In this document: positions 5,236-46,139 of the stretch, piece after piece | Layout: every line of letters begins with the position of its first letter | Position numbering within the stretch: the stretch's first letter is position 1 | Origin: Gemmatimonadetes bacterium 2013_60CM_65_52 | Lineage (GTDB): Bacteria; Gemmatimonadota; Gemmatimonadetes; Gemmatimonadales; Gemmatimonadaceae | Direction: 5' to 3' | DNA: 64,000 nucleotides | Assembly: GCA_002215645.1 (NCBI GenBank) | Contig: NGFI01000006.1 | Coordinates: 62,001 to 126,000 of the forward strand | The notes under the pieces: generated by a model | The model's database searches: none | The model's input: the letters and a program-made list of their open reading frames with translations, nothing else | Told to the model about the DNA's origin: nothing | Position numbers and translations under genes: made by a program

Positions 5236-6017
5236 ATGGAGGAGTGGATAGCCTCACGCTGGAATCGGTGATGGACCTGGCCCGTGTTACGGGAGAAGTC
5301 GCCATGCGACATTTCCGCACGCGTGTCCGCGTGGAGACAAAGAGCGACGGATCACCCGTGTCCGACGCGGATCGCGCTGCGGAGCGTGCGGCACGGGAGT
5401 GGGTGGACATTCGTTTCCCCGATGATGGCGTTCTCGGCGAGGAGTACGGAGAGCTGCGGCCAGGCGCCGCGCGACGGTGGATCGTTGATCCCATCGATGG
5501 CACGAAGGCGTTCGTTCGGGACGTTCCACTTTGGGGCTCGCTCGTGGCCCTGTGTGAAGGTTCGCATGTGCTTGCCGGCTCGGCCTTTTTTCCAGCCATC
5601 GACGAAATCATCGCCGCTGCTCCCGGGCAAGGATGTTGGTGGAACGGCGTGAAGGCGTCGGTCTCACGAACGCGCGGGATCGATGAGGCGACGGTTCTCA
5701 CGACCGATTGTGGATTCGCGGGTGATCGCGTTCGACAGCACGGCTGGGAGGCGCTCGCGTCGCGCGCGCAGTTGAGCCGCACGTGGGGCGATTGCTATGG
5801 GTATCTGCTGGTCGCCACTGGGCGCGCGGATGTCATGCTGGATCCGGTCCTCGCTCCGTGGGATGCTGCTGCGCTGTATCCCATCATCCGAGAGGCCGGC
5901 GGAGTATTCACCGACTGGGATGGTGAAGATACGGCGTTCGGAGGGAGTGCCATTGCAACCAACCGTGCTCTCGCGTCCGCCGTGCGATCGCTGCTCTCGA
6001 CACCCGACAGAGGCTGA
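5232..6017 (+). CDS. hisN: Inositol-monophosphatase-type histidinol-phosphate phosphatase
   Basis: 261 residues of the IMPase superfamily. Metal-binding motifs in order: KSDGSPVSDADRAAE, GEEYGE, the signature DPIDGTKAF, and the late WDAAALYPIIREAGG. Family members with this operon position dephosphorylate histidinol phosphate, and the absence of a phosphatase domain in HisB supports that role here. Strictly, IMPases can also act on other sugar or nucleotide phosphates, so the substrate is an inference from context. ATG 5232 overlaps the hisF stop. Confidence 0.85.
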   Translation: MNGGVDSLTLESVMDLARVTGEVAMRHFRTRVRVETKSDGSPVSDADRAAERAAREWVDIRFPDDGVLGEEYGELRPGAARRWIVDPIDGTKAFVRDVPLWGSLVALCEGSHVLAGSAFFPAIDEIIAAAPGQGCWWNGVKASVSRTRGIDEATVLTTDCGFAGDRVRQHGWEALASRAQLSRTWGDCYGYLLVATGRADVMLDPVLAPWDAAALYPIIREAGGVFTDWDGEDTAFGGSAIATNRALASAVRSLLSTPDRG

Positions 6018-6019
6018 CC

Positions 6020-6628
6020 GTGATCGATGTGGAATCGTTGAACTTCGAGAAGGGAGGCGGACTGGTGACCGTCGTGGCACAGGATGCCAATACGGGCCTG
6101 GTGCTGATGGTGGCCCACGCCGATCGCGCGGCGATTATCCGGTCTCTCGAGACCGGCGAGATGCACTATCACTCGCGCACGCGCGGTCTCTGGCACAAGG
6201 GACAGTCGAGCGGTAATACGCAGAAGATCGTTTCGCTGCATGCGGATTGTGACGGCGATGCCGTCCTCGCGCGCGTGGTGCCCGCGGGACCTGCGTGTCA
6301 CACGGGAACGCGGTCCTGTTTCCGACAGGATGATCTTCCGACGCGAGGTCTCGCGATGCTCGATGCGATCATTATGCAGCGGGCAAAGGCAGACGCCGCG
6401 GAAGGTGAGAGCTATACGCGCAAACTACTTGGAGACCGCAACCTGCGGCTCAAGAAGCTCGGGGAAGAGGCCGCGGAACTCGTAACCGCGTGCGCCGATG
6501 GGGACGCCGCTCGCGTGAATGAAGAAGCGGCGGATCTCTTCTATCACGCGCTGGTAGCGGTCCACGCCACCGGTGGCTCGCTCGCCGACGTGGAAGCGAT
6601 TCTCGATCGCCGACATGGCCGCCCCTGA
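6020..6628 (+). CDS. hisIE: Bifunctional phosphoribosyl-AMP cyclohydrolase / phosphoribosyl-ATP pyrophosphatase
   Basis: 202 residues, GTG start 6020, two nt after hisN. The N-terminal half is HisI (metal-binding SLHADCDGDAVLARV and a CHTGTRSCF zinc segment, with HYHSRTRGLWHKGQSSGN before them). The C-terminal half is HisE, an all-alpha MazG-like pyrophosphatase with LGEEAAELV and NEEAADLFYHALV. Together they catalyse steps 2 and 3 of histidine synthesis. The HisI-HisE fusion is common in bacteria. It closes the operon; the stop lies inside a small hairpin shared with the convergent neighbour. Confidence 0.96.
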   Translation: MIDVESLNFEKGGGLVTVVAQDANTGLVLMVAHADRAAIIRSLETGEMHYHSRTRGLWHKGQSSGNTQKIVSLHADCDGDAVLARVVPAGPACHTGTRSCFRQDDLPTRGLAMLDAIIMQRAKADAAEGESYTRKLLGDRNLRLKKLGEEAAELVTACADGDAARVNEEAADLFYHALVAVHATGGSLADVEAILDRRHGRP

Positions 6629-15730: not shown

Positions 15731-15801
15731 GCGTGAGGCCTCGCGCGGTCCGGTGACGTTTTCTCCATCGAAAGGTAGTCCCGCGGAGCTATCTTTCTGG
15801 C

Positions 15802-17751
15802 ATGTCTGCCCCCGGCCACGCGGTCGAAGCCGTCTATGATGTGATCGTGATCGGTGGCGGCCATGCCGGGACCGAGGCGGCCGTGGCCGCCGCCCGGCGA
15901 GGCGCTAGGACGGCGCTGATCACCAGCGCGCTCGAGACCATCGGCCAGATGTCGTGCAACCCGGCTATTGGCGGCGTCGCCAAAGGCACTGTCGTTCGCG
16001 AAGTCGATGCGCTCGGGGGCATCATGGCGCGCGCCACCGATCTGGCCATGTTGCAGTTCCGCATGTTGAACCGCAGCAAGGGCCCGGCCGTGTGGGCGCC
16101 GCGGGCACAGTGCGACCGCGGATTGTATCGGCGTGCTGTGCGTTCGTTGATCGAAGCACATCCGCGGCTGGAGACCGTGCAGGGGACAGTCGCGCGCTTG
16201 TTGCTCGACGACGCGCGTGTCGTGGGCGTCGAGACTCTGGAGGGACGACGCTTTTCCGCCGGAGCCGTCGTCGTCACCACGGGCACGTTTCTGCGGGGCC
16301 GCATTCATATCGGGACCACGACATCTCTCGCCGGTGGGCGTGCCGGCGAGGGCGCGGTGACGCACCTCGCGGAGCAGTTGGAGAACGCGGGGCTTCAGGT
16401 GGAGCGGTTCAAGACGGGAACGCCGCCACGCATCGACGGTCGAAGCGTGAACTGGAGTGCACTCGATCGACAGGAGAGTGAGATCGAGGCGTTCGACTTC
16501 ACCTGGTCGCATTTCTGGGACGAGCCGCGCGTGCGTGCCGATGGCGCAACCCGTCATCCGGCGCAAATGCCCTGTCTCATCGCATTCCTCGACGCGGAGG
16601 GAAAGCACATCATCAAAGAGCACATCGGGGAATCGGCGATGTATGGTGGCGCGATTGCCTCGAGGGGCCCGCGCTACTGCCCGTCTGTCGAGGACAAGAT
16701 CGTGAAGTTTCCCTTGGCCGAGCGGCACCAGCTCTTTCTCGAGCCCGAAGGGCACGATACCAGCGAGATGTACGTGAACGGTCTTTCCACGTCGCTGCCC
16801 GCACATGTGCAACTCGAGACGCTGCGATCCGTCCGCGGGTTGGAAGACGTGCGCATGACGCGCGCGGGCTACGCCATCGAGTACGACTACTATCCGCCGA
16901 CCCAACTCGATGCGACGCTCCAGGTGCGCGCTGTGCCTGGATTGTTCTTCGCGGGCCAGATCAACGGCACGACTGGATACGAGGAGGCGGCGGGGCAGGG
17001 TGTGGTCGCGGGCATCAACGCAGCCGCAGCCGCGTTGAACGGCGCGCCGCTCGTTCTGGGGCGAGAGAGCTCGTACATCGGCGTCCTCGTGAATGATCTC
17101 GTGACGCGCGGCGTGGATGAGCCCTACCGCCTTTTCACGTCGCGCTCCGAGTTCCGGCTCACCGTGCGTCAGGACAATGCCCTCCGCCGACTCGGCGGGA
17201 TTGCGAGGCAGCTCGAGCTCTACTCGCCCCGCGAACTGGAGTTGGTCGCTGGCCGCTTGGCGGCTGAAGATGAGGCGCGCGCGTTGGCCGACGCGACGTC
17301 CGTACGTCCCGAGGTCGTGGCGCCGCTCCTTGCGGAAGCACACAGCTCCGCGCTTGCTCACGCCGTTCGGGCATCGGAGCTAGCACGCCGCCAGAATGTG
17401 TCGCTGCGCGATGTGTTCCGGGTGCTCGACATCGGACAGCATTTGCCCGCGGATGCCGTGGTGAGCACTGAGCTGGAGCTCAAGTACTCCGGCTACTTCG
17501 AGCGTGAGCGGACACAGGCCGACAAGCTGCGCCGGCTCGGTGAGTTTCCCCTCGACCCGGCATTGCCCTATCACGAGATGCCCTCCCTTTCGTTCGAGGC
17601 CAGGCAGAAGCTCGCCGTGCTTCGGCCACACACGCTTGCTCAGGCGGCAAGCACGCCCGGAGTGAGTCCGAGCGATCTGCAGAACCTCGTGATCGAGATC
17701 GAGAAGCGACGTCGCGCGGGCGTGAGTCGTCGCGAGGCCCGTCGCCGCTGA
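15802..17751 (+). CDS. mnmG: tRNA uridine-5-carboxymethylaminomethyl modification enzyme MnmG (GidA)
   Basis: 649 residues. FAD-binding Rossmann motif VIVIGGGHAGTEAA near the N-terminus, then GGVAKGTVVREVDALGG, RGPRYCPSVEDKIVKFP and TGYEEAAGQGVVAGINAAA. The helical C-terminal domain contains STELELKYSGYFERE, the part that contacts MnmE. MnmG and MnmE together modify U34 of certain tRNAs; mnmE is at 44.8 kb. rsmG (gidB), which often follows, is not present here. Confidence 0.97.
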   Translation: MSAPGHAVEAVYDVIVIGGGHAGTEAAVAAARRGARTALITSALETIGQMSCNPAIGGVAKGTVVREVDALGGIMARATDLAMLQFRMLNRSKGPAVWAPRAQCDRGLYRRAVRSLIEAHPRLETVQGTVARLLLDDARVVGVETLEGRRFSAGAVVVTTGTFLRGRIHIGTTTSLAGGRAGEGAVTHLAEQLENAGLQVERFKTGTPPRIDGRSVNWSALDRQESEIEAFDFTWSHFWDEPRVRADGATRHPAQMPCLIAFLDAEGKHIIKEHIGESAMYGGAIASRGPRYCPSVEDKIVKFPLAERHQLFLEPEGHDTSEMYVNGLSTSLPAHVQLETLRSVRGLEDVRMTRAGYAIEYDYYPPTQLDATLQVRAVPGLFFAGQINGTTGYEEAAGQGVVAGINAAAAALNGAPLVLGRESSYIGVLVNDLVTRGVDEPYRLFTSRSEFRLTVRQDNALRRLGGIARQLELYSPRELELVAGRLAAEDEARALADATSVRPEVVAPLLAEAHSSALAHAVRASELARRQNVSLRDVFRVLDIGQHLPADAVVSTELELKYSGYFERERTQADKLRRLGEFPLDPALPYHEMPSLSFEARQKLAVLRPHTLAQAASTPGVSPSDLQNLVIEIEKRRRAGVSRREARRR

Positions 17752-43977: not shown

Positions 43978-44784
43978 GTGCGAATCACGTACGTCGGTCA
44001 CGCCACGCTGTTGCTCGAGGTCGAAGGTTGCCGGATCCTCACGGACCCCAACTTCGACACGACGCTCGGCCGGTTCCTGCCGCGAGTCACCGCGCCCGGC
44101 CTTGCCATCGATGCGCTGCCGCCGCTCGATGCCATGCTGCTGACTCACGCGCACGCCGACCACCTCTCGTTTCGGTCGCTCGATCAGCTTCCGCGCGAAA
44201 TACCGTTGTTCGCGCCGTCGGCCGTCGCCAGGTGGCTCCTGGGCAAGGGATATCGAAATGCCACGGGCCTCGACCCGGGCGGCGTCGTCTCCCTTCGTGA
44301 CGGCACGCTGCGAATTCACGCGGCACGGGCAAAGCATCGGGGCAACCGGTATGGCTTCGATCGGTGGCTCAGCGCGACGAACATGTATCTCCTCGAATCG
44401 CCGCACGAGAGCGCGTTCTTTGCCGGCGACACGGCGCTGACGTCCACGACCCACGACCTCGTCGAACGCATCCTGTGGCGTGCGGACCGCCAGCTCGACG
44501 TCGCACTGCTCCCCATCGGCTACGCGCCACCATGGAAACCGGGATTCCGCCGCGGTCATCTGACCGGTGAAGACGCGCTCTCACTCTTCGAGGTGCTCCG
44601 CGCGCGCGCGATGCTCCCTTATCATTGGGGAACGTTCCGGCATGTTACCGCAACGGCATTTGACGCAATTACCCGCCTCCAGAACAGCCTGAGCACCTTC
44701 CACCGGAAGGATCACGTGCACATCGTCGAGCCAGGCGAGACACTCGTCGTCGAGGGAGCAGACATCTGGCGAGCGAAACTCTGA
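43978..44784 (+). CDS. Metallo-beta-lactamase-fold hydrolase (UlaG/NAPE-PLD-like)
   Basis: 268 residues from GTG 43978, where homology begins (VRITYVGHATLLLEVEG). Zinc ligands are in LTHAHADHLS (HxHxDH), the GDT loop AFFAGDTALTS, and a late His in LPYHWGTFR. The family includes lactonases and phosphodiesterases acting on lipids or sugar phosphates; the substrate here is unknown. It occupies the place between yidC and mnmE where many bacteria have jag/khpB. Its stop codon TGA overlaps a CTG that probably starts mnmE. Confidence 0.88.
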   Translation: MRITYVGHATLLLEVEGCRILTDPNFDTTLGRFLPRVTAPGLAIDALPPLDAMLLTHAHADHLSFRSLDQLPREIPLFAPSAVARWLLGKGYRNATGLDPGGVVSLRDGTLRIHAARAKHRGNRYGFDRWLSATNMYLLESPHESAFFAGDTALTSTTHDLVERILWRADRQLDVALLPIGYAPPWKPGFRRGHLTGEDALSLFEVLRARAMLPYHWGTFRHVTATAFDAITRLQNSLSTFHRKDHVHIVEPGETLVVEGADIWRAKL

Positions 44785-46139
44785 GCGCGCTGAACGGAAC
44801 GCTGCTGGAAGGCGGCGCGACGATCGCGGCAATCGCCAGCGCTCCTGGAAGGGGCGCACTGGCGGTGGTTCGGGTCAGTGGAGCGGAATCCCACCAGATT
44901 GCGCGACGCATTCTGATGCCGTCCCTCACACAGATTCGTCTGGCACGACGATGCCGCGTGGTGGATCCGGCTGGCGCAACGGTGGACGACGCCGTGGCAA
45001 CACTATATGCGGCACCGCATTCGTACACCGGCGAAGACATGCTCGAGCTCACGGTGCACGGCGGTGCCGTCGCGCCGATTCTTGTGCTCGACACGCTCGT
45101 GGCGGCCGGTGCGCGCCAAGCGGAGCCCGGCGAATTCACCCGGCGCGCGGTCCTGAACGGCAAGCTGGATCTGCTGCAGGCCGAGGCCGTCGCTGATGTG
45201 ATCGACGCGCGCAGCTCGGCGGCGCATCGTCAGGCACTCAGACAGCTCGGCGGCGGACTTTCACGTCAGCTCACCGACCTCCGAGGTCAAATTCTCCAGC
45301 TCGAGGCGCTGCTGGCATATGACATCGATTTTCCGGAGGAAGACGACGGGCCGATTTCGCGCGAGCGTGTGGCTGCCGCGACGGACGAGGTGATGACGAC
45401 GCTGCAGCGCCTCCTCTCGACAGGACGAATCGGCGAGCTCGTGCATGATGGTGCACTCGTGGTACTGGCCGGGCCGCCGAATGTCGGAAAATCGTCTCTC
45501 TTCAACGCCCTCGTGGGCGAATCGCGCGCCATCGTAACCGAAACGCCCGGGACGACACGGGACGCAATCGAAGCAGTGATCGATCGGCCGACGTTTCCGT
45601 TGCGTCTCGTCGACACCGCCGGGTTGAGACAGGATCCCGATCCCATCGAGCGGCTTGGCATCGAAACGGCGACCCGGTACCTGGAGCGAGCCGCCATCGT
45701 GCTCGCCTGCTTGACCGGCGTGGCGGACGAATGCGTCACCGCGACCCTGCGGGACTGCACCGACGCGGCAATCATCACCGTCGGGACGAAGGCGGATCTG
45801 GCGCGAGCCGCGTTCGATGCCGACGTCCATGTCAGCGCGCTCACGGGAACGGGCTTGTCGGAGTTGCTTGCCCTGATCGAGGCGCGCCTTGGGGAGCGGC
45901 CAGGATTGTCAGCGCCAGATGCGCCGGTGCTGACGAGAACGCGACACCGTGTGATGATCGAGCAGGCCGTAGAGGAGATGCACCGCTTCCGGGCCGCCTG
46001 GGCAGTGAGCGACCTTCCGGCGCCCGTCGTCGCCTCTCATCTGCACGCGGCGCGAGGCAGCCTGGAAGAGTTGATCGGCACGGTGCAGGTCGATGACGTG
46101 CTCGACGTCGTCTTTCGAAGCTTCTGCGTGGGAAAGTAG
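44781..46139 (+). CDS. mnmE: tRNA modification GTPase MnmE (TrmE), probable CTG start
   Basis: 452 residues if translated from CTG 44781, matching the usual ~450-residue length. The conserved opening TIAAIASAPGRGALAVVRVSG (in two halves: TIAAIASAPGRG, ALAVVRVSG) precedes the first GTG at 44865, and no ATG, GTG or TTG lies in frame between it and the preceding gene. CTG 44781 overlaps the previous stop as CTGA. The GTPase domain has G1 GPPNVGKSS at about 231, G2 TETPGTTRDAIE, G3 DTAGLR and G4 TKAD, and the protein ends in FCVGK. Works with MnmG on tRNA U34. Confidence 0.93.
   Translation: MSALNGTLLEGGATIAAIASAPGRGALAVVRVSGAESHQIARRILMPSLTQIRLARRCRVVDPAGATVDDAVATLYAAPHSYTGEDMLELTVHGGAVAPILVLDTLVAAGARQAEPGEFTRRAVLNGKLDLLQAEAVADVIDARSSAAHRQALRQLGGGLSRQLTDLRGQILQLEALLAYDIDFPEEDDGPISRERVAAATDEVMTTLQRLLSTGRIGELVHDGALVVLAGPPNVGKSSLFNALVGESRAIVTETPGTTRDAIEAVIDRPTFPLRLVDTAGLRQDPDPIERLGIETATRYLERAAIVLACLTGVADECVTATLRDCTDAAIITVGTKADLARAAFDADVHVSALTGTGLSELLALIEARLGERPGLSAPDAPVLTRTRHRVMIEQAVEEMHRFRAAWAVSDLPAPVVASHLHAARGSLEELIGTVQVDDVLDVVFRSFCVGK

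What the first reader, a model, noticed from the sequence alone, without database searches (positions are those of the whole stretch)
44781..44866. mnmE appears to start at CTG, coupled to the previous stop
The conserved MnmE N-terminus begins about 15 residues after position 44781, and no in-frame ATG, GTG or TTG exists between the end of the MBL gene and GTG 44865, which would delete that conserved segment. CTG 44781-44783 overlaps the TGA at 44782-44784, the same 4-nt geometry (ATGA or GTGA) used at fifteen other junctions here, and yields 452 residues, the normal MnmE length. Re-initiation at CTG is the simplest explanation. A standard gene caller would truncate the protein.
Basis: partly seen in the sequence, partly recalled or inferred. 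Interest (0 to 1): 0.65.

Follow-up and report, generated by a model that had tools for sequence, protein, structure and literature searches.

The report
tRNA-modification gene starting at CTG
The gene for the tRNA-modifying enzyme MnmE in this bacterium has no ordinary start codon in the right place and most likely begins at a rare CTG that overlaps the stop of the gene before it; a whole related genus carries a CTG at the corresponding place, so the oddity is probably real biology rather than one sequencing error.

Summary
From the in-frame stop (44661-44663) to GTG 44865, mnmE has no ATG, GTG or TTG. GTG 44865 would cut about 15 residues from the TrmE_N domain. Those 15 codons are under protein-level selection: against five genus mates, differences fall 10/6/50 at codon positions 1/2/3. 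So translation starts upstream, at a non-canonical codon. CTG 44781 is the best candidate: in three of five genus mates mnmE starts with GTG in the same 4-nt overlap with the same upstream gene. The case is not isolated. In a genus of another family of the order, all nine species with mnmE have CTG where a sister genus has ATG or GTG, 0-4 nt after the yidC stop. Two species of a third genus have a CTGA overlap, but an upstream GTG remains possible. Control genes (mnmG, lepA, pyrG) all had a canonical start. Two cautions: CTGA overlap is common by chance, and upstream CTG 44766 has a better Shine-Dalgarno match, so the exact CTG is not settled. Rare CUG starts and stop-start coupling are both known; this is a well-supported new instance. 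No protein evidence exists, and a base error at 44781 cannot be excluded.

The parts
43978..44784 (+). upstream gene: metallo-beta-lactamase-fold hydrolase (MBL), proposed start GTG 43978, stop TGA 44782-44784
   Evidence: Lactamase_B_2 4.1e-27; PRK00685 family below its cut-off; translation
44781..44783 (+). CTG, most likely mnmE start codon; overlaps TGA 44782-44784 (CTGA)
   Evidence: the same MBL-mnmE junction has GTGA in three of five genus mates
44766..44768 (+). alternative in-frame CTG start, with GAGGGAG (44752-44758) 7 nt upstream
   Evidence: duplex with 16S tail -8.5 kcal/mol against -2.7 for CTG 44781; also where the composition-based coding signal begins
44752..44758 (+). GAGGGAG, Shine-Dalgarno-like, inside the MBL gene
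   Evidence: sequence
44802..44807 (+). two further in-frame CTGs (44802, 44805), 5-6 codons before the conserved Thr-Ile
44820..44864 (+). 15 codons (TIAAIASAPGRGALA) of the TrmE_N domain that GTG 44865 would delete; under protein-level selection
   Evidence: codon-position differences 10/6/50 summed over five genus mates; aligned to MnmE structure chains 9hip, 1xzp
44781..46139 (+). mnmE (trmE), 452 aa + stop
   Evidence: NF003661 389.3 bits over cut-off 380; TrmE_N, MnmE_helical, MMR_HSR1
44865..44867 (+). first in-frame canonical start codon (GTG); inside the conserved domain
   Evidence: strong SD-like stretch GGAAGGGG upstream

Best explanation
mnmE is translated from a CTG codon, most likely CTG 44781, by ribosomes that finish the MBL gene at the overlapping TGA and restart on the spot (termination-reinitiation) with the ordinary fMet initiator tRNA. 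Shown from sequence: there is no canonical start, the N-terminal segment upstream of GTG 44865 is under protein-level selection, the genus mates have a GTGA counterpart, and related genera carry CTG at the mnmE start. Inferred: that CTG 44781 is the codon used, that restarting ribosomes rather than freshly bound ones use it, and that the first residue is fMet.
For: No ATG/GTG/TTG in frame 44664-44864. Codons 44820-44864 are conserved as protein: differences to five genus mates sum to 10/6/50 at codon positions 1/2/3. TrmE_N and solved MnmE structures align from residue 13-14. Three of five genus mates start mnmE with GTG in a GTGA overlap with the same MBL stop. The MBL gene does not force the base: 44781 is the third base of a Leu CTN codon. 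In genus g28 of family f2 all nine species with mnmE have CTG at the place where sister genus g50 has ATG or GTG, 0-4 nt after the yidC stop; third-position divergence there is large (0.45 per site), so this is more than near-identity of the genomes, and three of these are separate public assemblies (QHVB01000024, QHUZ01000036, JAUYMC010000326). Two g19 species show CTGA overlaps. All 12 CTG junctions lie -4 to +4 nt from the upstream stop against 64 of 205 canonical ones (only three lineages, so the Fisher p of 2e-6 is inflated). Coupling falls off steeply by about 20 nt (PMC10666635) and for some pairs needs little from the SD (PMC6728339).
Against: No protein or ribosome data. CTG 44781 has a poor Shine-Dalgarno match (-2.7 kcal/mol), while CTG 44766 has a good one. 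The CTGA geometry is common by chance. CUG is a weak start codon: CUG complexes are less stable than AUG, GUG or UUG ones (PMC11497404), and only 1 of 5,080 ancestral GUG starts switched to CUG in sets of close relatives (PMC5622118). A consensus error at one base could turn a real GTG or ATG into CTG. The 13 codons between CTG 44781 and the conserved Thr are not conserved, so conservation does not fix the exact start.
Confidence: 0.6

Rival explanations
1. mnmE starts at a different in-frame CTG, above all CTG 44766, by ordinary Shine-Dalgarno-guided initiation inside the MBL gene (5 extra residues, 19-nt overlap); or at CTG 44802/44805 nearer the conserved domain.
For: GAGGGAG 7 nt upstream of CTG 44766, -8.5 kcal/mol with the 16S tail; the composition-based coding signal peaks exactly there. 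CTG 44802/44805 would give the short leader seen in many relatives.
Against: Three genus mates use a GTG at the MBL stop, with no good SD at that GTG. GAGGGAG codes for MBL residues and may be chance. CTG 44802/44805 lie 17-20 nt past the stop, a poor distance for reinitiation (PMC10666635).
Confidence: 0.22
2. A base-calling or assembly-consensus error: the real base at 44781 is G (or A or T) and the gene starts at an ordinary GTGA, ATGA or TTGA.
For: The genome is known only from one assembly; three congeners have GTGA; true CUG starts are so rare (PMC5622118) that errors at start codons compete with them.
Against: An error must hit one particular base; CTG at the mnmE start recurs in separate assemblies of another genus, which suggests that this gene tolerates it.
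Confidence: 0.1
3. Translation begins at GTG 44865 and gives a 424-aa MnmE without the first strand of its N-terminal domain (short isoform or decayed gene).
For: GTG 44865 is the first canonical start and has a strong SD-like stretch (-10.5 kcal/mol).
Against: The 15 codons upstream of it show protein-level selection; the SD-like stretch is the coding of the family's conserved Pro-Gly-Arg-Gly. An additional minor short product is not excluded.
Confidence: 0.04
4. A -1 ribosomal frameshift at the MBL stop makes an MBL-MnmE fusion, so that no start codon is needed.
For: The two frames are in the -1 relation and overlap at the stop.
Against: The sequence GCGAAACTCTGAGC has no X XXY YYZ slippery heptamer, the local RNA fold is no better than shuffles (z 0.50), and genus mates have a standard GTG start at the same place.
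Confidence: 0.02

Closest known systems
MnmE (TrmE) tRNA U34-modification GTPase, NF003661 / PF10396 + PF12631
   Same: Full domain set, length, C-terminal FCVGK, score over the equivalog cut-off.
   Different: Start codon only: most relatives begin with ATG, GTG or TTG; here and in genus g28 CTG.
Translational coupling by termination-reinitiation at -4 nt overlaps (ATGA/GTGA; PMC6728339, PMC10666635)
   Same: Same 4-nt overlap and gene order; congeners have the textbook GTGA.
   Different: CTGA in place of ATGA/GTGA; no coupling measured.
Conserved non-canonical start codons in bacteria, such as GTC/GTT of Streptomyces sigR, held down by IF3 (PMC5472188)
   Same: A weak start codon kept across a genus (g28: nine of nine species with mnmE).
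   Different: sigR has an extensive RBS and is the first gene of its coupled pair; here the CTG follows an upstream stop mostly with little SD, and no IF3 control has been tested.

Membership tests
MnmE/TrmE GTPase | Equivalog-level HMM score | tested here: met
   NF003661 389.3 bits, cut-off 380; TIGR00450 284.1, cut-off 252.6
MnmE/TrmE GTPase | TrmE_N, helical and G domains, C-terminal C-x-G-K | tested here: met
   PF10396, PF12631, PF01926; protein ends FCVGK
Gene with a CTG start | No ATG/GTG/TTG that preserves the conserved N-terminus | tested here: met
Gene with a CTG start | Segment between the CTG and the first canonical start is translated (protein-level selection) | tested here: met
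   For codons 44820-44864 only: differences 10/6/50 by codon position. Codons 44781-44819 cannot be aligned.
Gene with a CTG start | N-terminal peptide beginning at that codon | not testable with these tools
   No proteome
Gene with a CTG start | CTG kept in related species | tested here: inconclusive
   Not in genus mates, which have GTG; but all nine g28 species with mnmE have CTG
Termination-reinitiation pair | Stop and start overlap or lie within a few nt, same strand | tested here: met
   4-nt overlap; 12 of 12 CTG junctions within -4..+4 nt
Termination-reinitiation pair | Downstream translation depends on translation of the upstream gene | not testable with these tools
   Needs reporters
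Relaxed initiation genome-wide | Initiator tRNA lacks the three G-C pairs of the anticodon stem | tested here: not met
   GGGCTCATAACCC, the normal stem-loop, in G000, G004, G036, G051, G178, G076, G168; in a predicted tRNA-Met in the loci scanned
Relaxed initiation genome-wide | Other genes also need CTG | tested here: not met
   Small sample: mnmG 45/45, lepA 7/7, pyrG 10/10 scored loci have a canonical start; in the window mnmE is the clearest outlier of 55 ORFs

The most novel reading that the evidence does not exclude
In the order of this genome, mnmE is repeatedly and stably driven from CTG placed at the stop of the preceding gene because a weak, stop-dependent start is selected for: MnmE output is then set by the flow of terminating ribosomes and by initiation-factor fidelity (as IF3 sets sigR), a gene-specific regulatory use of CUG rather than drift.
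Probability: 0.12. Interest if true: 0.6.

Novelty: new member of a known kind. Interest (0 to 1): 0.42.

Why it matters
CUG starts in bacteria are rare and seldom shown to be kept in evolution. A conserved gene whose start is CTG in nine species of one genus, and again in this genome, always within 4 nt of an upstream stop, is a natural test of whether reinitiating ribosomes accept codons that fresh initiation mostly rejects. It also marks a class of N-terminal annotation errors, because the next canonical GTG sits behind a false Shine-Dalgarno made by the conserved Pro-Gly-Arg-Gly.

Tried and rejected
Upstream canonical start: none up to the in-frame TGA 44661. MBL-MnmE fusion by -1 frameshift: no slippery heptamer, no special RNA fold. 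Relaxed initiator tRNA: normal in the genomes checked. Genome-wide CTG use: not seen in three control genes or in the window. The CTGA geometry as proof: rejected, since it is common by chance; a second CTGA at 6014 (hisI-type gene) has a GTG two codons on and needs no CTG. The longer 16S pattern GGATCACCTCCTTTCT failed in the own genome because its tail reads CCTCCTTAACGG. Papers: two searches, for CTG starts in Gemmatimonadetes and for a CUG start of mnmE, gave only a few hits whose titles and abstracts do not concern this.

Full report
The observation. mnmE lies at 44781-46139 on the + strand behind a metallo-beta-lactamase-fold gene that ends with TGA 44782-44784. In the mnmE frame the last upstream stop is TGA 44661-44663, and no ATG, GTG or TTG follows before GTG 44865. 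From CTG 44781 the product has 452 residues and scores as MnmE (NF003661 389.3 bits, cut-off 380), with TrmE_N, the helical domain and the G domain. TrmE_N starts at residue 14 from that CTG, and solved MnmE chains (9hip, 1xzp) align from residues 13-14. Starting at GTG 44865 would therefore remove about 15 residues of the domain.

Is the missing segment really translated? The 15 codons 44820-44864 were compared with the five genus mates in which mnmE was found. Differences at codon positions 1, 2 and 3 are 2/1/11, 3/1/8, 3/1/11, 1/1/9 and 1/2/11, in sum 10/6/50. This is the signature of protein-level selection. Initiation must lie upstream of it, at a codon that is not ATG, GTG or TTG.

Which codon? 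In-frame CTGs stand at 44766, 44781, 44790, 44802 and 44805. In three of the five genus mates (G003, G004, G008) mnmE has a GTG in a GTGA overlap with the stop of the same MBL gene; in the other two (G001, G002) a GTG follows the stop at 16-23 nt. CTG 44781 is the positional counterpart of the GTGA starts, and base 44781 is the free third base of a leucine codon of the MBL gene, so the neighbour does not force a C. Against it, CTG 44766 has GAGGGAG at 7 nt (duplex with the 16S tail -8.5 kcal/mol) whereas CTG 44781 has only -2.7 (the 16S tail of this genome is CCTCCTTAACGG and the energies used a near-identical tail). I put CTG 44781 at about 0.6 and another CTG at about 0.2.

A TGA stop with the next gene in the -1 phase always yields an in-frame NTG overlap, and CTGA is the commonest such tetranucleotide among all ORF pairs of this GC-rich window. 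Its count of fifteen ATGA/GTGA junctions was not reproduced; a strict count on coding ORFs gives six.

Related genomes. Searches of the window's family (f1, 148 genomes) and of a second family of the order (f2, 102 genomes) found TrmE_N in 120 and 87. Together with public contigs and stretches taken from those genomes, 289 loci with 224 distinct mnmE junctions were read. Most have a plausible ATG, GTG or TTG. The clearest exception is one genus of f2 (g28): all nine species with mnmE read CTG-Leu-(Ser/Thr)-Asp-x-Ile at the place where sister genus g50 has ATG or GTG followed by Leu-Ser-Asp. Seven of them have no canonical codon at all back to the in-frame stop; G051 has a GTG 20 codons upstream and G176 a TTG 32 codons upstream, both inside yidC. 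The CTG comes 0, 1 or 4 nt after the yidC stop, with little Shine-Dalgarno except in G177. Third-position divergence within the genus is 0.45 per site, so this is conservation across real distance, and at least three of these junctions come from separately named public assemblies (QHVB01000024.1, QHUZ01000036.1, JAUYMC010000326.1). Two species of genus g19 in f1 have CTGA overlaps with the yidC stop, but there a GTG 23 codons upstream inside yidC remains possible. The window's genome, g28 and perhaps g19 therefore look like separate gains; no full-length tree was made to test this.

Position. All 12 CTG junctions lie between -4 and +4 nt from the upstream stop, against 64 of 205 junctions with a canonical start. 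The formal p value is 2e-6, but only three lineages are involved, and the choice of CTG used this position where several were available, so the real weight is modest. It fits published work in which coupling by reinitiation nearly vanishes at about 20 nt (PMC10666635) and depends on Shine-Dalgarno to a degree that varies from gene to gene (PMC6728339).

Controls. The need for CTG is not general in the sample tested: mnmG 45 of 45, lepA 7 of 7 and pyrG 10 of 10 scored loci have a canonical start near the conserved N-terminus, and in the window mnmE is the clearest of 55 ORFs whose coding signal begins well before the first canonical codon (the longer case, at 1707-2312, has a low total score and may not be a gene). 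The initiator tRNA stem-loop is normal in this genome and in g28 and g19 genomes.

Mechanism. Most likely the ribosome that ends the MBL gene (or its 30S subunit) restarts at the overlapping CTG with fMet-tRNA. CUG pairs weakly with the initiator tRNA at the first base (PMC11497404), and GUG-to-CUG switches at starts are very rare (1 of 5,080, PMC5622118), so expression is expected to be low. Whether low output is merely tolerated or selected, as for the GTC start of sigR under IF3 (PMC5472188), is not known.

What remains uncertain. One assembly supports base 44781; a consensus error is a real rival (about 0.1), though less likely given the recurrence elsewhere. A minor product from GTG 44865, which has a strong but fortuitous Shine-Dalgarno-like stretch, is not excluded. 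No protein evidence was available for any of these genomes.

Verdict. CTG starts and stop-start coupling are known kinds; this is a good new instance, with an unexpected comparative side: a CTG start of mnmE kept across a whole genus.

Noticed in passing
L026, L027, L107/L185, L111/L201, L164, L184, L189, L192, L206 (genus g28): mnmE starts with CTG 0-4 nt after the yidC stop in all nine species in which the gene was found; sister genus g50 has ATG or GTG at that place.
   Followed up: yes
L177 (G225): mnmE has ACG at the position where relatives have ATG, GTG or CTG, 4 nt after the upstream stop TAG; ACG start or a base error.
   Followed up: no
L217 (G238): mnmE has no ATG/GTG/TTG/CTG codon within 39 codons of the conserved Thr; another candidate for an unusual start.
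   Followed up: no
L064/L268 and L070/L277 (genus g19): CTGA overlap with the yidC stop; the ATG that congeners have inside the yidC tail is replaced by ACG here.
   Followed up: partly
window 44845-44867: GTG 44865 follows GGAAGGGG, a strong Shine-Dalgarno-like stretch that is only the coding of the conserved Pro-Gly-Arg-Gly; a likely trap for gene callers in mnmE genes.
   Followed up: partly
window 6014-6628: Phosphoribosyl-AMP cyclohydrolase/ATP pyrophosphohydrolase gene (hisI type) with CTGA at 6014 but a GTG at 6020 and an ATG nearby; start ambiguous.
   Followed up: partly
window 15757-17751: mnmG, the partner of MnmE, lies in the same window about 27 kb upstream of mnmE, with an ordinary ATG (15802).
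   Followed up: no
G010, G012, G033, G040, G052, G056: Near-complete genomes without any TrmE_N match; G010 still has mnmG. Possible loss of mnmE, or assembly gaps.
   Followed up: no
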